Below are positions 12,150 through 20,025 of a stretch of 64,000 nt of DNA, one piece after another. A program made the position numbers and the translations under genes. Positions within the stretch are counted from its first letter, which is position 1; each line of letters begins with the position of its first letter. Under the pieces are notes generated by a model. It saw only the letters and a program-made list of their open reading frames with translations. It made no database searches and was not told where the DNA came from. Where the stretch lies: contig NZ_JBBUKT010000017.1 of the NCBI RefSeq assembly GCF_038066715.1, positions 1-64,000 of the forward strand, given 5' to 3'. This DNA comes from Luteolibacter sp. Y139 (GTDB taxonomy: Bacteria; Verrucomicrobiota; Verrucomicrobiia; Verrucomicrobiales; Akkermansiaceae).

Positions 12150-12314
12150 TTACTTCATCGTGCCTGAGGTGACCGCATACGCGGAGATCGTGAAACCGTG
12201 AAATGCCAGCACCGTGGCGGCTGTAACCCCGGAGGTCTTTTTCACAAAGCTCCGCCGGGTGATGGGAGGCCGGGACAATGGCTGGTCTTGCGAAGGAAGT
12301 TCTTCTTTGTTCAT
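12150..12314 (-). CDS. Short Tat-signal protein (54 aa)
   Basis: A 54-residue ORF with a textbook twin-arginine signal: polar N-region, then ITRRSFVKK at residues 18-26, a hydrophobic stretch (GVTAATVLAFHGFTISA) and an AYA-like cleavage site near residues 45-47. Only seven residues remain afterwards. A GAGGTG Shine-Dalgarno-like sequence precedes ATG 12314. Very short Tat ORFs of this kind are frequent in Verrucomicrobiota; alternatively this is the 5' stub of a larger exported protein lost by deletion. It is divergent from the peptide and radical SAM genes to its right. Confidence 0.55.
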   Translation of the reverse strand: MNKEELPSQDQPLSRPPITRRSFVKKTSGVTAATVLAFHGFTISAYAVTSGTMK

Positions 12315-12626: not shown

Positions 12627-12815
12627 ATGAAAGAGAAAAGCGAAGTCCATTTGGAGTCATCAAGTCTGGCTGGGGAAATGGGCAGATCAACTGATCTGGC
12701 CTCCTCCACCTCGGGCACGGTCACCAAAGATTCCCCGGCAGCGAAACTTGCCGCGGCCATCGGAGTGCCCCTCGAAAATGCTCCGAAGGCATACTATCCA
12801 GGCACGGAGGACTAG
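12627..12815 (+). CDS. Candidate RiPP precursor peptide (62 aa)
   Basis: A 62-aa ORF that ends about 260 bases before two radical SAM genes on the same strand. It has a charged N-terminus (MKEKSEVHLE), a Ser/Thr-rich middle, then an Ala-rich helix-like stretch (SPAAKLAAAIGVPLENAPK) and a short tail AYYPGTED with the only two tyrosines. No cysteine. This leader/core-like layout, the length and the position suit a precursor for the downstream enzymes. There is no strong Shine-Dalgarno sequence, and homology cannot be tested here, so it is a candidate only. The nearby 25-codon ORF at 12933 competes for the role. The stretch 12315-12626 holds nothing else I can support. Confidence 0.4.
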   Translation: MKEKSEVHLESSSLAGEMGRSTDLASSTSGTVTKDSPAAKLAAAIGVPLENAPKAYYPGTED

Positions 12816-12932
12816 TGATCCAAGAGATCTGGCCCAATGGCGTTTGTGTGACTAGCCCGATCGTGTGGGTGCGCTCATTCGCCCCTCCGTGAATCGGGCG
12901 GTTAAACGTAATTACCCTTCAGGATTTGCTTT

Positions 12933-13010
12933 ATGATGGGTGTCATTGGGTATCGTGGATCTTTGGGTAGCTCTTCCCCATTTTCAAGCGGATCAGTTTT
13001 GCCGCACTGA
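12933..13010 (+). CDS. Possible 25-aa peptide ORF before the radical SAM gene
   Basis: An ATG at 12933 is preceded by AGGA with eight bases between, a better ribosome site than that of the 62-aa ORF. The peptide is Gly/Ser-rich (MMGVIGYRGSLGSSSPFSSG, then SVLPH). It could be a small precursor, a leader peptide controlling the radical SAM operon, or chance. Confidence 0.22.
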   Translation: MMGVIGYRGSLGSSSPFSSGSVLPH

Positions 13011-13072
13011 GATCAATCGGAATGGCGGGTCTTTCCGACTAATGGTAGCGAGTAGTTTGAGCGTGGCCTCTT

Positions 13073-14050
13073 ATGTATTTTAATCGGATCTTCTTGCTCG
13101 TTACGGACGCCTGCGATTCCAGATGTACGCTGTGCGACTATTGGCTGACCAAGAATCCGAAGTTCATTGATTCAGACTTCGTGGAAGAGAAGGTTGCCTC
13201 CTTCATCAAGGAGAACGGAGTCTCGGTGGTCTGCATTTCAGGAGGAGAGCCAAGCTTGCACCCCGACCTAGGGAAGATTGTGAGATCCGTCCGCAGGGCT
13301 GGAGCCACAGCAACCTTGACTACGAGCACCACACGCTTGGAGACTCGCTTCGAGGAGATTAGGGACCTCGTAACCCACTACATGATTTCGTTGGATGGGG
13401 CGGATCGGGAAACCTATCGTGGAAGCCGGGGGATCGACTTGTTTGATCATGCTGTGGGTTGGATCCGGCGACTAAGGGTTGAAACCTCGGCTGATTTGGC
13501 AATCTCTTGTGTTTTGCAGGCCTGCAATATCGCGAGCATTCGCCTCATCTACGAATTGGCGATCGAGCTACAAGTGAACCGGATTTTCTTCCGCGTTCCC
13601 GATTTCAAGCCTCATTCCTTTGGCCGCTCCGGACTTACCCGAAGCAAGACCCTAAAGCAGGTTGAAGTGACGCCCTCGGAAGCGAGCGCCTTGGCGGCAG
13701 ATTTGGAATGGATCATCAAGGCTGACGAGAAACACAAGCTGCTTGGCCAGTCCTCTGGGAATCTGAGGCGCAAGGCGCAATTCTTCCAATGCGTTTCGGA
13801 GAATGCCGACTATGAGGAGGAGGACCAGCTGTGTGATGTTCCGCTTACCAGCCTTGTCATTCATGCGGACGGCACATGTCGGCCTTGTTTCTACCTTCCC
13901 CAAGTCCAGCCCTTTAACCGCGCTCCGTTGGAGGGCAGCGCCTTTCTGGACGTGCACAGCCGTATGCTCAATGATAAGGATTTCCGCAAGCAGTGGTGCA
14001 ATGCGTGCCAACAGTTTGACGGCCACAAGCATCTGATTGAGCGTTTATGA
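13073..14050 (+). CDS. Radical SAM enzyme with SPASM/twitch-like C-terminus
   Basis: A 325-aa radical SAM protein. The cluster-binding motif is CDSRCTLC (Cys14, Cys18, Cys21), followed by the SAM-site CISGGEPSLHPDL. The C-terminus has five further cysteines: Cys254, Cys269 and Cys272 in CDVPLTSLVIHADGTCRPC, then Cys309 and Cys312 in WCNAC. That is the pattern of a twitch/SPASM auxiliary iron-sulfur domain, typical of peptide-modifying enzymes. Its stop overlaps the ATG of the next gene (ATGA at 14047), so the two are translationally coupled. The N-terminal MYFNRIFLLVT is the usual first strand, which supports the chosen start. Exact reaction unknown; peptide crosslinking or epimerisation would fit. 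Confidence 0.8.
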   Translation: MYFNRIFLLVTDACDSRCTLCDYWLTKNPKFIDSDFVEEKVASFIKENGVSVVCISGGEPSLHPDLGKIVRSVRRAGATATLTTSTTRLETRFEEIRDLVTHYMISLDGADRETYRGSRGIDLFDHAVGWIRRLRVETSADLAISCVLQACNIASIRLIYELAIELQVNRIFFRVPDFKPHSFGRSGLTRSKTLKQVEVTPSEASALAADLEWIIKADEKHKLLGQSSGNLRRKAQFFQCVSENADYEEEDQLCDVPLTSLVIHADGTCRPCFYLPQVQPFNRAPLEGSAFLDVHSRMLNDKDFRKQWCNACQQFDGHKHLIERL

Positions 14051-15855
14051 ATTCCGTTCTGGTTGCGGCCTTGCCGTGGAATCTCGCCGATATGATGTCG
14101 GTTCAGGTGGCAGCCCTGAAGTCGTTTCTCACGTCAAAAGGAATCGATGCCTTGGGACGCCACTACTATTTGGGAACCGACAGATTCTTTTCAGATGAAG
14201 AGATCGATCTGATTCATTCTCGCTTCTTGGGTGATCATCTCTATGGAATGCTGCTTTTCCCTGAGTGCTCCGAAGCCATTGGGGCAAGGATTTACGAGAA
14301 ATCCGGAGGGAAAATGGATCCCCGGAGCTGTTTGGAGCGAATCCGGGCCTTCACGGAATCGGTGGCGGACGACATCGTCGCCCTCGGGCCTGCGCTGGTT
14401 GGGTTCACGACCACGCATATGCAGTATTTGGGGTCAATTGCGACGGCTAAAGCCGTCCGGGAGCGCATGCCGGATACCAAGTTCGTATTAGGGGGCCTCG
14501 CTCTGCACGGGGAGCCGGCACGCAACACGTTGGCCCTTTTTCCGTGGATCGATTTCATCGTTGTCGGCGAAGGCGAATCAGCTCTGTGGAGACTCAGCCA
14601 GCACATCCGTGGGGATAGACCGATTGAGGAAGTTCCCCAAGTGATTTACCAAGTCAACGGCATCATTCAAGAGAACCCCTCGATAGAGTCGATTGGCGAC
14701 ATCGATGACCTGCCTTTTCCTGATTACTCCGACTATTTTGTTCAGCTCAAGGCCCGCAGCAGGAGTATTACTCCCCGGGCCACAGTGGAGATGGTCCGCG
14801 GGTGCCGCTGGGGCCGATGCAGCTTCTGCATCGAGGGCTTGCCGACCCGGGGGGGATTTCGCACGAAAACTCCGACGCGAGTGGTTAAGGAGATCCAACG
14901 ATACGTGGAAGATTACCAGATCCTCGATTTTGTGACCTCCGATCCGGACGTGGCCTTCAACGCGCCGATCTTTGAGGAAATCAGCAACTTGGGCTACGAT
15001 TTGAGCTTCATGGTGGAACTCTCCGGTTTAGTGCGCGTTCCCCAATTCGATGTAATGATTGCGGCTGGCGTTCAGACGGTTCAAATCGGGATAGAGTCGT
15101 TTAGTCCCGGTTTGCTGAAGTCCTTCAACAAAGGGGTGAGCTTGGCAAAATATGTGGAGCTTCTACGCTACTGTGCCGAGCGCGGAATCAAGCTGGTTTA
15201 CAACAATATTTACCGCTCTCCCTTTGAGGTTCAGCAGAATCTGGAAGAATCCGTAGAGAATATGCGACGATTGATGTATTTCCAGCCGCCCCGGCTATCG
15301 GAGTTCCGGGTTTCCGTTGGCAGCGCGATTATGAACGACTACCAGAAGTACGGGATCAAGCGCCTGCTTCCTTCCGACGAGGTGATCGGCTATCCTGACG
15401 AAATTGCCGCCCGGGTTGGCATGCTGATTTCATTCAATGCCGGTTTCGGTTTTGAGCGCGCCGATGGTGTGCAGGATCCTGATCACGGCCCCTATTTGGA
15501 GCTCCTGGAGGAGTGGCGGAGCATGTGGCTCTTGAAGCCGAGGAGGCGGGCTCGCCGTGGGTTGAATTTCGTAAGGATCGACCACCAGATCGGGAATGAA
15601 TGTTACCAGGTCGAGATTTCGAATGCGTTGGAAATCAGCTTGTTTGAGTTTTGCCAGAAGTTGCGGAGCCGCCGTGAGCTTCGCTCGAAGTTCTCTGATG
15701 TCGCACCTGAAGAACTCGATGCGGCGATCGAGCGACTCTGGGATCGGCATCTGTTGTTCCGGACCGCCGAAGAATGTATTGCGCTTGTTTCACTCTCATC
15801 GAGCAGAGAGTCTTTTTCCCAGATCGCAGAGTCGACCCTAAGCGAGGCGAACTGA
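14047..15855 (+). CDS. B12-binding radical SAM protein, RiPP-maturation C-methyltransferase-like
   Basis: A 602-aa protein. Residues 1-200 form a cobalamin-binding-type domain (VLVAALPWNLADMMSVQVA, LVGFTTTHMQYLGS, FVLGGLALHG, IVVGEGESAL). The radical SAM core follows; its cysteines are Cys253, Cys258 and Cys261 in VRGCRWGRCSFCIEG, a CX4CX2C spacing instead of CX3CX2C. The C-terminal 90 residues (ISLFEFCQKLRSRRELRSKF, then LDAAIERLWDRHLLF) look like the winged-helix end found in the RiPP-maturation radical SAM family (TIGR03975-like). Such enzymes methylate unactivated carbons of peptides. Coupled to the upstream radical SAM gene by a 4-base overlap. Family assignment is by motif and layout, not by search. 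Confidence 0.75.
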   Translation: MNSVLVAALPWNLADMMSVQVAALKSFLTSKGIDALGRHYYLGTDRFFSDEEIDLIHSRFLGDHLYGMLLFPECSEAIGARIYEKSGGKMDPRSCLERIRAFTESVADDIVALGPALVGFTTTHMQYLGSIATAKAVRERMPDTKFVLGGLALHGEPARNTLALFPWIDFIVVGEGESALWRLSQHIRGDRPIEEVPQVIYQVNGIIQENPSIESIGDIDDLPFPDYSDYFVQLKARSRSITPRATVEMVRGCRWGRCSFCIEGLPTRGGFRTKTPTRVVKEIQRYVEDYQILDFVTSDPDVAFNAPIFEEISNLGYDLSFMVELSGLVRVPQFDVMIAAGVQTVQIGIESFSPGLLKSFNKGVSLAKYVELLRYCAERGIKLVYNNIYRSPFEVQQNLEESVENMRRLMYFQPPRLSEFRVSVGSAIMNDYQKYGIKRLLPSDEVIGYPDEIAARVGMLISFNAGFGFERADGVQDPDHGPYLELLEEWRSMWLLKPRRRARRGLNFVRIDHQIGNECYQVEISNALEISLFEFCQKLRSRRELRSKFSDVAPEELDAAIERLWDRHLLFRTAEECIALVSLSSSRESFSQIAESTLSEAN

Positions 15856-15880
15856 AGATCGCGAGAAAGACCCTTTTTCT

Positions 15881-17182
15881 ATGTACGTCAATCAGTTAGA
15901 GAAGCCGTTTCTTGAGGAGCTCGAAGCGCGCGGACTTTTGAAGCAGAGGACGGCGGAACTCGTAGAGCCGGATTTTTCCGCGGCCGAGCGTCCGACCTTG
16001 TACGTGGGATATGATCCATCGGCCACCAGTTTGCATGCGGGAAGCTTGATTCCCATTTTGACGATGGACAGGTTTCGCCGGCGGGGGGGGCAAATCATAA
16101 TCCTGTTAGGAGGGGCGACGGGTTTGATCGGCGATCCCTCCGGAAAGGATCTGGAGAGAAAGCTGGAAAACGAGGCCAGCGTCCTGAAGCGAATCGGGAT
16201 GCTCGCCGCACAGCTACAGGGCTTGTTTGCTCGGACCGAAGGCCCGGAGCCAATCGTTGTGAACAACGGCGATTGGTATGGTGGGATGCCGGTCCTCCAG
16301 TTTCTGCGGGACATTGGGAAGCACTTTTCGGTGAATCAGATGCTCACCCGTGAATCAGTTCGTTCACGACTGGAAGACCGTGACCACGGGATCTCATTCA
16401 CCGAGTTCTCCTACCAATTGTTTCAAGGTTACGATTTCCTTCATCTGTTCCAGACTTACGGATGTACGATCCAGATGGGAGCTTCGGACCAGTGGGGGAA
16501 CATTGTATCCGGAGTGGATTTGGTGCGGCGCGTGGCGGGAAGTACGGTGCATGGGCTTACCCTGCCTCTCCTGACAAACTCGGAGGGAAAGAAATACGGC
16601 AAGTCGGAGAAAGGTGCCGTCTGGCTGGATCCTGAGCTGACCTCGCCCTACCTTTTCTATCAGTTCTGGTGGAACTCCACCGATGATGATGCGCCGCGCT
16701 TTCTTAGATGGCTAACCGACTACTCCGAGCAAGAAGTAGAGGAACTGGCCAAAGGCAGCCCAGAACTGCGGCTGCCTCAAAAGGCTCTGGCGGACTATCT
16801 CACCGCAAGGGTGCACGGTGCAGAACAAGCCGATTTAGCCCGCCGTGTGAGCGCCGTGATTTTCTCCGATGACTTTGGGCAGTTGAGCAATGACGTCGTG
16901 GATGTCTTGGCAAGCACCGTGCCGACGGTTCGGGTGTCGGCTGCCGAGCCGTGCTTGATTGCTGAAACACTCGTCCTGCTTAAAGCGTGCAAGTCGAAAA
17001 GTGAAGCGCGGCGGCTCATTACCCAAGGAGCGGTGAGCGTCAACGGACAGAAGCTCTCAGCGGCTGAGGAAGAGTTGGCTGGCTACTCGGCCGGACGTGA
17101 CGCATTGGTGGTGGCGGTGGGGAAATCCCGCAGGTTCTTGGTGCATTTTGACCAATCCACACGCCACTCTTCCTCCAGGTAG
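15881..17182 (+). CDS. tyrS: Tyrosyl-tRNA synthetase
   Basis: A full-length class I TyrRS (433 aa). It attaches tyrosine to tRNA-Tyr. The HIGH-type signature is PSATSLHAGSLIP (about residues 46-58), the tyrosine/tRNA-site strands are SYQLFQGYDFLHL and QMGASDQWGN, and the KMSKS loop is KKYGKSEKG (about 234-242). An S4 domain closes the protein (SKSEARRLITQGAVSVNGQK). All motifs look intact, so it should be active. It lies 25 bases after the B12 radical SAM gene in the same direction and is probably in its operon. That is an odd place for a housekeeping gene and suggests a second, specialised copy; whether another tyrS exists cannot be seen here. The last ten residues look like a non-native extension. 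Confidence 0.92.
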   Translation: MYVNQLEKPFLEELEARGLLKQRTAELVEPDFSAAERPTLYVGYDPSATSLHAGSLIPILTMDRFRRRGGQIIILLGGATGLIGDPSGKDLERKLENEASVLKRIGMLAAQLQGLFARTEGPEPIVVNNGDWYGGMPVLQFLRDIGKHFSVNQMLTRESVRSRLEDRDHGISFTEFSYQLFQGYDFLHLFQTYGCTIQMGASDQWGNIVSGVDLVRRVAGSTVHGLTLPLLTNSEGKKYGKSEKGAVWLDPELTSPYLFYQFWWNSTDDDAPRFLRWLTDYSEQEVEELAKGSPELRLPQKALADYLTARVHGAEQADLARRVSAVIFSDDFGQLSNDVVDVLASTVPTVRVSAAEPCLIAETLVLLKACKSKSEARRLITQGAVSVNGQKLSAAEEELAGYSAGRDALVVAVGKSRRFLVHFDQSTRHSSSR

Positions 17183-17300: not shown

Positions 17301-18501
17301 CGTACTGTCCAGAATTCGATCTCTGCTCTTCATGCTGCCTCTCTGTGGTAGTAGCGGAGCAGACCTCCTAGCCGTTCCCGACAGTTCAGTTCTCCCGCCC
17401 CACCGGGAACGAAGCTTGCCTCGATGAGCTTGTTCTCCAGGCCTTGGTGATTCCGTTCGTCGTGGTAGTGGGAGCAGAATTCCTCAACCGCCCGCCGGAG
17501 CGATCGCTCTCCCACGAGAATCAGATGGTCGAGGCACTCGGCTTTGATCGTCCGCACGAACCTTTCAGCGAATGCATTCAGGTTGGGCGACCTGGCTGGA
17601 AGACGGATCGACTCCACGCCCGCACACTTGAGGATCGATACGAACTCCCGGGTAAACACGGTCGCACGATCATGGATCAGGAATCTGCACTCCAGCAGGA
17701 ACCCCTCTTGGCAATCGGTCAGATTCCGGCCGACTTGGCATCCACCTTCCGTCAGGCTCCGGGACGATTCCTGCTACGTGGACGCTTCGAGTCGCAAGGC
17801 GGATCACGAAGAACACGTGATAGCGGGTGAGACGCCCCCAAGACCACAGCTCCACGGTGAAGAAGTCAGCAGCGCCAAGGACCTCCCAATGGACGCTCAG
17901 GAACTCTGCTCAGCTAGTCCCCTTCCCTCGTTCCGGTGCTGGCTCTACCCCTGCTTTCTTTATGATGCCTGCAATGGTGCCACGGTCGAGGTCGTGGCCG
18001 AGGTTTGCCAGGGCACCTTGGATCCGGGTATAGCCCCAGCCCCGATTCTCTTCAGCCATCCTCAGGACCAAGGCTTGTAGATAGTCAGCTGTCGGAGGAC
18101 GACCAACCTGCCGACGCTCACCACTCGAATCGTACTTTGCCGCGATCAGCTTCCGATGCCAGGCCAAGAGGGTCTGCGGCGAAACGATCGCGGCAATCTC
18201 TATGAGCCCGCTCAAGCCAATGCGCTTCGCCTTCTGGGCCAGCCTCATCGCTAAACCTCAGGCGCCTCTTGCCCTGCAACTTCCTGAGCACACGAACCTC
18301 CTCTTGGAGGTATTCGATGACGTCCTGCTGCTGTCGGTTGATCCAACCAGCCAAGCCAACCAGGATGAGAGTTCCGATCCCCATCGCAAAAGCTTGGCAG
18401 AGCGACAGCCGTTGCACAGCTCAGAAGCGAGCTGGCATTAGCCGGCTTCAGACCATTGAAATTCAGGCCGTTCCGGAGCAGTCGAGTTTCTGGACACTAC
18501 G
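17301..18501 (-). mobile_element. Decayed IS element with rve-type transposase (about 1.2 kb)
   Basis: The imperfect terminal inverted repeats are CGTACTGTCCAGAA at 17301-17314 and the complement of TTCTGGACACTACG at 18488-18501. The transposase runs on the minus strand from about 18417 to 17330. I see no target-site duplication. Two other remnants of the same family lie at 250-530 and 2512-2635, so it was once active in this genome. Confidence 0.8.
17330..18417 (-). pseudogene. rve/DDE transposase (IS3/IS481-like), inactivated
   Basis: The pieces in order are: an N-terminal helix region (IEYLQEEVRVLRKLQGKRRL) from 18417; a frameshift near 18248; the middle region (LIEIAAIVSPQTLLAWHRKL, VGRPPTADYLQALVLRMAEE); an in-frame TGA at 17910-17912; the first part of the catalytic core (VELWSWGRLTRYHVFFVIRL); a second frameshift between about 17740 and 17660; and the end of the core (RLPARSPNLNAFAERFVRTI, then YHDERNHQGLENKLIE). 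At least three lesions make it non-functional. The family is the integrase-core transposases that join DNA with a DDE active site. Confidence 0.85.
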
Positions 18502-19032: not shown

Positions 19033-20025
19033 CTACGCCTCGAGATGTTTCGCAACCGTATCCTCAAATTTCGGCCCTACTATAAATGCAAGGTCTTCGG
19101 CTACCGAAGCGAAGCGACCCGCGTAAACTTCGACGTTCAACGGTTCACGGTTTTTATAGTTAATGTGAATGCGATGGGTGAGAATACCGAGCGGAAGCCC
19201 TTCGGGGGTGAAGCTCTTCGAGTAGAAGAGTTGATTAATCAGCTCGATGGACGAGCTCCCTGATTGTTCCTTGCTTTTTCCTTCTAGCAAGCTGGTTACT
19301 TCTACGCTTGCGATGTCCGCCGGCTCCCTCTCTTCACCGATTCCTGTCATTTCCAAGTTCGTGTTTCGGACCAAGCTTTCGTGAAGGTACTGAATCTCCA
19401 CTTGTTGCGTATTTGCGAAGGGGCGCTGACGAATCCACGCCCTTCCTTTTTCAAACGTAACTGTAGTTCTGGAAACCGAGATTAGCCCAGTGAAAGCGAA
19501 CACCTCCCGTCTGGTGCAATCGGCCAGCTCTTTCAAGAACCGAACGCCTATGTAGCCGTCTCCAACACCGCAACCTTCGAGCATAAGCCCCCCGGACCAC
19601 TCCACATCGTCAGCAGGGATTCTTGGTTGGCCATTCGGATCCCACTTGGAGATGCGTTGCATGCGATCAAACCAGTACAGCGCATTATAGTATTGGAGTG
19701 TACCCTTCGTCGTGATTGCCGTTTGGCCGTCACCGACCTCAAAAATACCGCTTGCTCCGTGACCGAGGAGGTGGATGAAGCGTGGTTGTCCCTTTGCGTT
19801 CCAATCAAACAATTGGCCGACTTCGTCAGAGCTTCCATGACTGAGTTTTGCGTTGCGGATAGAGCGCAGCCACTGAAGGGCTCCGTTGTCAGGACCGCTC
19901 GAGCAGGAGCGGTGATGGGGCGGAGCCTCGGTGATCTCGACCCCATTTCGACCGACGTCGAATGGCTTGCGGTGCTCTATCGGCGATTCCTCAAAAAACG
20001 CACTATGTGATAGCATGGCTCTCAT
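19033..20025 (-). CDS. DUF4347-like protein (His-Gly / Gly-Cys core)
   Basis: A 330-aa protein. Residues 85-190 carry the features of a DUF4347-like or caspase-related alpha/beta domain: RFIHLLGHGASGIFEVGDGQ with a His-Gly pair, then GGLMLEGCGVGDGYIGVRFL with a Gly-Cys pair, and finally TRREVFAFTGLISVS. DUF4347 usually sits at the start of very large secreted adhesins; here it is a short stand-alone protein without a signal peptide. The C-terminal 140 residues are unrecognised. Whether His and Cys form a catalytic dyad is inference. A two-gene unit with the 104-aa ORF is likely. Confidence 0.55.
   Translation of the reverse strand: MRAMLSHSAFFEESPIEHRKPFDVGRNGVEITEAPPHHRSCSSGPDNGALQWLRSIRNAKLSHGSSDEVGQLFDWNAKGQPRFIHLLGHGASGIFEVGDGQTAITTKGTLQYYNALYWFDRMQRISKWDPNGQPRIPADDVEWSGGLMLEGCGVGDGYIGVRFLKELADCTRREVFAFTGLISVSRTTVTFEKGRAWIRQRPFANTQQVEIQYLHESLVRNTNLEMTGIGEEREPADIASVEVTSLLEGKSKEQSGSSSIELINQLFYSKSFTPEGLPLGILTHRIHINYKNREPLNVEVYAGRFASVAEDLAFIVGPKFEDTVAKHLEA

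What the first reader, a model, noticed from the sequence alone, without database searches (positions are those of the whole stretch)
12627..17182. Possible new RiPP-type locus: short peptide, two radical SAM enzymes and a tyrosyl-tRNA synthetase
Seen: a 62-aa ORF, a radical SAM enzyme with a SPASM/twitch-like cysteine set, a coupled (ATGA) B12-type radical SAM enzyme with a winged-helix-like end, and a full TyrRS 25 bases later, all on one strand. Known: the RiPP-maturation radical SAM family (TIGR03975-like) methylates peptide carbons; SPASM enzymes modify peptides. Inferred: a modified peptide is made here, and TyrRS takes part as a resistance copy or a Tyr-tRNA supplier. I know of no described pathway with this exact set.
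Basis: partly seen in the sequence, partly recalled or inferred. Interest (0 to 1): 0.85.

Follow-up and report, generated by a model that had tools for sequence, protein, structure and literature searches.

The report
Orphan radical SAM operon with TyrRS
One bacterium carries a small gene set, not found in the relatives searched, that joins a candidate peptide, two radical-chemistry enzymes and a spare, strongly altered tyrosyl-tRNA synthetase; it may be the footprint of an unknown natural product whose maker protects itself with the spare enzyme.

Summary
The four genes exist as described. The 62-aa ORF has coding-like composition (2 of 77 null ORFs score as high). P0002 is a radical SAM enzyme with SPASM/twitch-like cysteines. 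P0003 overlaps it and matches the RiPP C-methyltransferase model TIGR03975 end to end, just below cut-off (276.1 against 281.85 bits). Its motif is CX4CX2C; all 80 GTDB relatives kept have CX7CX2C. P0004 is a complete TyrRS but not the cell's only one: a second TyrRS, 29% identical, is of the type seen in its genus. P0004 has the longest end branch in two TyrRS trees.

The set is an orphan: at E 1e-20 P0003 occurs in 1 of 260 family genomes, its own, and 0 of 80 GTDB relatives have a TyrRS-like neighbour in the sequence held. Conservation of the RiPP set could not be tested. New lead: P0002 aligns nearly full length with AgnC7 of agrocin 84, encoded beside an immune LeuRS. I favour a TyrRS-directed or tyrosine-like product with P0004 as self-immunity (0.4). 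A RiPP with a bystander TyrRS is the main rival. No product, target or resistance was shown.

The parts
12627..12815 (+). 62-aa ORF P0001, candidate precursor peptide with a Tyr-Tyr near its C-terminus
   Evidence: coding score 0.151, reached by 2 of 77 null ORFs; no Pfam or NCBIfam family; no convincing homologue in 37 relatives besides the own genome or among 2561 small ORFs beside TIGR03975 genes
13073..14050 (+). P0002, radical SAM enzyme (CX3CX2C at 14, 18, 21) with SPASM/twitch-like auxiliary cysteines; AgnC7-like
   Evidence: PF04055 65.4 bits; cysteines; AgnC7 alignment 25% over residues 6-277, 70 bits, final CxxCxQ shared; best PDB match BlsE, E 3.6e-11 over residues 6-132
14047..15855 (+). 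P0003, B12-type radical SAM enzyme, divergent relative of TIGR03975, motif CX4CX2C (253, 258, 261)
   Evidence: TIGR03975 276.1 bits, cut-off 281.85, residues 5-580 of 602; motif contrast 80 of 80; tree
15881..17182 (+). P0004, second TyrRS of the genome (TyrS class), strongly diverged
   Evidence: TIGR00234 330 bits; other TyrRS at G000:C13; end branch 2.83 against a median of 0.22 and 2.3 against 0.46
17330..18417 (-). Transposase-like pieces (rve_3 integrase core and further short frames) directly downstream of the operon
   Evidence: PF13683 41 bits at 17330-17659; HTH_32 18.8 bits, below cut-off, at 17913-18248; no family at 18121-18417

Best explanation
A laterally acquired mini-operon in which two radical SAM enzymes (P0002 AgnC7-like, P0003 a divergent TIGR03975 relative) modify a peptide or an amino-acid/nucleotide scaffold into a compound that acts on TyrRS or resembles tyrosine, while P0004 is a second, insensitive TyrRS that protects the producer, as AgnB2, albomycin SerRS2 and indolmycin TrpRS1 do in known producers. 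Shown: the gene order and overlap, the enzyme classes, that P0004 is an extra, diverged, complete TyrRS, and that the host keeps a separate TyrRS. Inferred: that a product is made, that it targets TyrRS, and that P0004 resists it.
For: P0004 is one of two TyrRS in the genome and the two share 29% identity. A review passage says that co-existing sensitive and resistant aaRSs are evolutionarily distinct, at about 30% identity, and that producers of albomycin, mupirocin and indolmycin carry such copies (PMC9437257, passages). With P0004 as query, 5 of 288 phylum genomes, own included, show two matches (the other four were not checked for split hits). P0004 has the longest end branch in both TyrRS trees yet keeps tyrosine-site and KMSKS-type motifs. 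P0002's best match among 30 loci compared is AgnC7, and the 6 of 10 plasmid matches that cover at least 80% of P0002 are AgnC7 copies. AgnC7 is encoded with the agrocin-84-resistant LeuRS AgnB2 (PMC5059758, abstract start and passages). A 25-base gap and a 4-base overlap fit co-transcription.
Against: The linkage rests on one genome; no relative shows it. ATP-site substitutions in P0004 are not diagnostic: of 41 TyrRS rows the last letter of HIGH is N in 25, H in 11, S in 4 and unread in 1; Val in place of Cys (position 35, numbering recalled) was not seen in these rows, but A, I, L and S were. No transporter, protease, amino-acid activation or nucleoside gene was recognised nearby. Of 13 agn genes compared with the window, only agnC7 matches inside the locus; two short-chain dehydrogenase genes match an ordinary one at 31 kb. 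AgnC7 similarity is only 25%; two plasmid hits that cover about half of P0002 have slightly more bits (63 and 62 against 59), and 42 of 96 relatives have some P0002 match, best E 1.4e-11. In 8 of 8 annotated stretches of plasmid tyrS genes viewed, no radical SAM gene is listed.
Confidence: 0.4

Rival explanations
1. A true RiPP locus: P0001 is the precursor, P0002 cross-links or otherwise modifies it and P0003 C-methylates it; the TyrRS is a chance neighbour or a plain spare gene.
For: P0001 has coding-like composition; P0003 is nearest to TIGR03975, a member of which lies next to an annotated NHLP-clan protein (L086); P0002 has auxiliary cysteines.
Against: No RRE, protease or exporter recognised; P0001 has no relative and lies 257 bases upstream; P0003 lacks the CX7CX2C motif of its 80 relatives.
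Confidence: 0.3
2. The TyrRS serves the pathway's tyrosine economy: it supplies Tyr-tRNA to a tRNA-using step, or keeps translation going or senses tyrosine when the pathway drains it, as discussed for tyrS in enterococcal tyramine clusters.
For: An extra tyrS in a tyrosine-consuming operon has precedent (PMC3315439, abstract and passages).
Against: No tRNA-dependent ligase, cyclodipeptide synthase or tyrosine decarboxylase family among the neighbours scanned; no T-box or other Rfam match at 9-21 kb. In the tyramine case itself overexpression of tyrS made no significant difference in cultures, and the authors lean towards a non-critical role (passages).
Confidence: 0.15
3. A patchwork of laterally acquired genes with no joint function, next to a transposase remnant; P0004 is a redundant translation gene.
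For: Transposase-like pieces directly downstream; genes of the 0.7-20 kb region are absent beside the matching LysR-like genes of two congeners; the GT8-like gene upstream occurs in other genomes.
Against: Tight same-strand spacing, overlap and similar coding scores of the three enzyme genes.
Confidence: 0.15

Closest known systems
Agrocin 84 cluster of pAgK84 (AgnC7 radical SAM enzyme and AgnB2 self-immunity LeuRS)
   Same: An AgnC7-like radical SAM enzyme (25% over 280 aligned positions) and an extra aminoacyl-tRNA synthetase in one locus.
   Different: TyrRS instead of LeuRS; of 13 agn genes compared only agnC7 matches inside the locus; no B12-type radical SAM enzyme is named among the 14 features of the stretch viewed.
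TIGR03975 RiPP maturation radical SAM C-methyltransferases
   Same: Full-length match of P0003, same side of the tree.
   Different: Below the curated cut-off; CX4CX2C instead of CX7CX2C; at most 33% identity, over partial segments.
Chuangxinmycin/indolmycin-type producers with a spare TrpRS
   Same: Spare aaRS in a producer of an aaRS inhibitor (indolmycin: PMC9437257). Chuangxinmycin targets TrpRS (abstract starts); its spare TrpRS and B12-type radical SAM methylase are recalled.
   Different: The target would be TyrRS; no scaffold genes were recognised here.
tyrS of enterococcal tyramine clusters
   Same: TyrRS gene inside an accessory, tyrosine-related operon (PMC3315439).
   Different: No decarboxylase or antiporter family among the window proteins scanned; no radical SAM gene is named in the passages read.

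Membership tests
TIGR03975 RiPP C-methyltransferase | Score at or above the curated cut-off of 281.85 bits | tested here: not met
   276.1 bits; four relatives score 604.6-695.3
TIGR03975 RiPP C-methyltransferase | CX7CX2C radical SAM motif, as in 80 of 80 relatives here | tested here: not met
   P0003 has RGCRWGRCSFC, CX4CX2C
TIGR03975 RiPP C-methyltransferase | Groups with the family rather than with other B12 radical SAM enzymes | tested here: inconclusive
   On the family side of a branch with SH-aLRT 99, but basal with end branch 3.08 and a long-branch warning
RiPP pathway | Precursor peptide gene next to the enzymes | tested here: inconclusive
   P0001 looks coding but has no relative
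RiPP pathway | Recognised RRE/PqqD-type domain (not present in every RiPP class; recalled) | tested here: not met
   No such Pfam match in the neighbours scanned or in P0003's tail; a fold-level search was not possible
RiPP pathway | Modified peptide product | not testable with these tools
   Needs expression and mass spectrometry
SPASM/twitch radical SAM enzymes | Auxiliary cluster cysteine region | tested here: inconclusive
   PF13186 19.3 bits against 21.5 for the C-terminal 136 residues; cysteines 254, 269, 272, 309, 312
Self-immunity aminoacyl-tRNA synthetase | Second copy beside a distinct housekeeping enzyme | tested here: met
   (that the C13 copy is the housekeeping one is inferred from its presence in the genus)
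Self-immunity aminoacyl-tRNA synthetase | Linked to genes of a product that inhibits the same synthetase | tested here: inconclusive
   Linked to two radical SAM genes; product unknown
Self-immunity aminoacyl-tRNA synthetase | Insensitive to the inhibitor | not testable with these tools
   Needs an enzyme assay

The most novel reading that the evidence does not exclude
A ribosomal peptide (P0001, with Tyr-Tyr near its C-terminus) is remodelled by the AgnC7-like and the CX4CX2C B12 radical SAM enzymes and cut to release a modified tyrosine or tyrosyl peptide that poisons TyrRS; P0004 is the dedicated immune TyrRS. This would be a peptide-derived TyrRS antibiotic with built-in self-immunity, combining the logic of PQQ-type peptide-to-amino-acid chemistry and of agrocin/microcin C-type aaRS poisoning (these parallels recalled).
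Probability: 0.15. Interest if true: 0.85.

Novelty: new variant of a known kind. Interest (0 to 1): 0.5.

Why it matters
Self-immunity synthetases point to the target of an unknown antibiotic. In the passages read, the review's table lists resistant copies of IleRS, SerRS and TrpRS, and for TyrRS only the L-Tyr-selective TyrZ and fused TyrRSs (PMC9437257). A natural TyrRS-directed product with a genetic handle would be a testable lead. P0003 also marks a branch at the edge of the RiPP C-methyltransferase family with a different spacing of its cluster-binding cysteines.

Tried and rejected
Resistance signature in the ATP site of P0004: rejected as not diagnostic. 41 of 48 TyrRS loci gave rows (7 had no hit at E 1e-5 and dropped out); the same kinds of change occur in other copies, except Val at the Cys position, which was not seen.

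Homologues of P0001: of 37 relatives besides the own genome, 19 gave matches at E up to 1, the best 0.0046 inside a 405-codon frame; the frames looked unrelated (7 loci). Among 2561 small ORFs beside the 80 TIGR03975 genes one reached E 0.018. Rejected as chance.

Close relatives of P0003 by motif: the pattern for RGCxWGxCxFC in viral contigs gave 7 loci; 6 have weak P0003 matches (best 28% over 302 positions), 2 have short weak P0002 matches (E 2e-4 and 8e-4), none a TyrRS match at E 0.01. Patterns from P0003 alone gave no relative in viral contigs; alignment A2 gave 72 distant ones, A3 none.

Conserved neighbourhood: 16 further TIGR03975-type loci have no TyrRS-like match at E 0.01; one (L098) has a short P0002-like hit of 64 residues upstream of its TIGR03975-type gene, not followed up.

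tyrS on plasmids and phages: 106 plasmid and 44 phage records match P0004, all below 60% identity; nine plasmid stretches were viewed, eight with annotation, none with a radical SAM gene listed. P0002 has no match in phages.

Defence-system reading: PADLOC gives only a partial viperin similarity for P0002, 42.9 bits over residues 8-116, and nothing for P0003 and P0004.

Regulatory RNA: no Rfam match at 9-21 kb. Promoter and terminator scan at 12.3-17.7 kb: 0 and 2 sites, below the shuffle means of 2.1 and 6.8.

Literature: TyrRS with self-resistance and biosynthetic gene cluster, radical SAM with aaRS and self-resistance, agrocin 84 with radical SAM: 0 papers each. TyrRS with radical SAM and gene cluster: 2 papers, listing only. 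TyrRS with RiPP: 37 papers, 10 listed, no title on this. Two wider searches and the TyrZ/TyrS one were read as listings; passages were read in three papers. The library is open-access only, so this is no proof of absence.
Full report
On the + strand lie a 62-codon ORF (12627-12815), a 325-aa radical SAM gene (13073-14050), a 602-aa radical SAM gene that overlaps it by ATGA (14047-15855) and a 433-aa tyrS 25 bases on (15881-17182). With codon statistics from 18 long genes of the window they score 0.151, 0.158, 0.185 and 0.170 bits per codon, and their other two same-strand frames score negative. 2 of 77 out-of-frame ORFs of 50-90 codons inside known genes reach the peptide's score. Real 62-codon pieces of host genes average 0.330 and 14% of them score below the peptide. 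So P0001 is probably a gene, and all four look somewhat unlike average host genes. A gap of 257 bases and no clear ribosome site weaken P0001's link to the operon. The window begins at the end of its contig (contig length 102,877), so what lay further upstream is unknown.

P0002 has a CX3CX2C motif and further cysteines at 254, 269, 272, 309 and 312. It matches PF04055 at 65.4 bits, and SPASM only below cut-off: 17.4 bits whole and 19.3 for its C-terminal part against 21.5. Of 58 NCBIfam matches the best 25 were shown; the top one has 57.0 bits against a cut-off of 306. The best solved relative is the cytosylglucuronate decarboxylase BlsE, E 3.6e-11 over residues 6-132. 42 of 96 relatives have some match, best E 1.4e-11 at 30%. 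In plasmids 10 records match; 6 cover at least 80% of P0002 and these are AgnC7 itself or copies at least 99% identical to it. Two hits that cover about half of P0002 have slightly more bits (63 and 62 against 59). P0002 and AgnC7 align over residues 6-277 at 25% and 70 bits, share CDYW at the cluster motif and end with a common CxxCxQ. AgnC7 is the best of 30 loci compared (59.3 bits, the next 51.2). I found no paper in the library on its function. The agrocin 84 plasmid also carries AgnB2, the LeuRS that resists the toxin (PMC5059758, abstract start and passages). Of 13 agn genes compared with the window only agnC7 matches inside the locus; agnC2 and agnD3 match a short-chain dehydrogenase at 31 kb.

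P0003 matches TIGR03975 over residues 5-580 with 276.1 bits, 5.8 bits under the curated cut-off; the next model has 76.8. Of 337 phylum genomes 8 have a match over that cut-off; by tblastn these eight are 24-28% identical to P0003 over the part aligned. All 80 have CX7CX2C; P0003 has CX4CX2C. 0 of the 80 have a P0002-like or P0004-like match at E 0.01 in the sequence held; 56 of 80 hold more than 8.5 kb on both sides. Since only exact peptide patterns were scanned, a true relative may have been missed. A 61-row tree places P0003 on the TIGR03975 side of a branch with SH-aLRT 99, at its base, with end branch 3.08 and a long-branch warning. By protein search 6 of 96 relatives have any match to P0003, none better than E 1.7e-7. 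102 of 384 class genomes, own included, have one, the best foreign at E 3.5e-36 and 31% over part of the protein. 1 of 260 family genomes, the own, has one at E 1e-20. So this is an orphan in what could be searched; metagenomes were not searched.

P0004 is a complete TyrRS (330 bits). Tyrosine-site and KMSKS-type motifs are present, and HIGH reads HAGS. PF00579 finds three genes in the genome: P0004, a TyrRS at C13:191581, and one that I take for TrpRS by eye. With P0004 as query, 16 of 17 congeners show one TyrRS match each and one (72% complete) none. The C13 enzyme is 29% identical to P0004. Six of the 56 other genomes in that call have a TyrS at 40-45% identity, each as the only match. Among 288 phylum genomes 5, own included, show two matches (not checked for split hits). 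In trees of 35 and 30 rows P0004 has the longest end branch, 2.83 against a median of 0.22 and 2.3 against 0.46, and no firm place. I looked for a resistance signature in the ATP site and found none that is diagnostic: of 41 rows the last letter of HIGH is N in 25, H in 11, S in 4 and unread in 1. Val at the Cys position was not seen, while A, I, L and S were.

Surroundings. Directly downstream are transposase-like pieces. Upstream, on both strands, lie genes with weak GT8 and GT90 matches and a DUF707 gene; the GT8-like one has relatives in 10 of 56 other genomes. Two congeners keep LysR-like and isochorismatase-like genes found at 20.8-26 kb of the window (names by eye), and one of them the monooxygenase-like gene too. 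Neither has any gene of the 0.7-20 kb region, at E 1e-5, in the about 14 and 9 kb held beyond the LysR-like gene. GC content is a little lower at 10-16 kb (0.52-0.55) than at 21-28 kb (0.56-0.61). This fits an acquired region.

How it may work. A second, distant aaRS beside biosynthetic genes is the mark of self-immunity in known producers: the review passages give about 30% identity between the pair and the examples of albomycin, mupirocin and indolmycin (PMC9437257). The pair here fits that mark. With an AgnC7-like enzyme and a B12 radical SAM enzyme as partners, I favour a product directed at TyrRS, scaffold unknown. The rivals are a RiPP with a bystander TyrRS, a tyrosine-economy role as discussed for enterococcal tyrS (PMC3315439), and a patchwork without joint function. 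Nothing here shows a product, a target or resistance.

Novelty. Each part belongs to a known kind; the combination is new to me, and the searches named in Tried and rejected found no paper on it. 

Noticed in passing
window 12150-12314, - strand: A 54-aa ORF that is little more than a twin-arginine signal (PF10518 14.5 bits, cut-off 22.7; coding score 0.122), facing away from the operon.
   Followed up: partly
   Followed up: partly
window 17330-18417, - strand: Transposase-like sequence in several short frames beside the operon, probably a remnant.
   Followed up: no
window 19033-20025, - strand: A 330-aa protein with a weak DUF4347 match (23.4 bits, cut-off 24.6) between the transposase pieces and the LysR-like gene.
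   Followed up: no
   Followed up: no
L092 (2534-4351 and 4888-6012): Two P0003-like stretches in tandem on a short contig of the same class.
   Followed up: no
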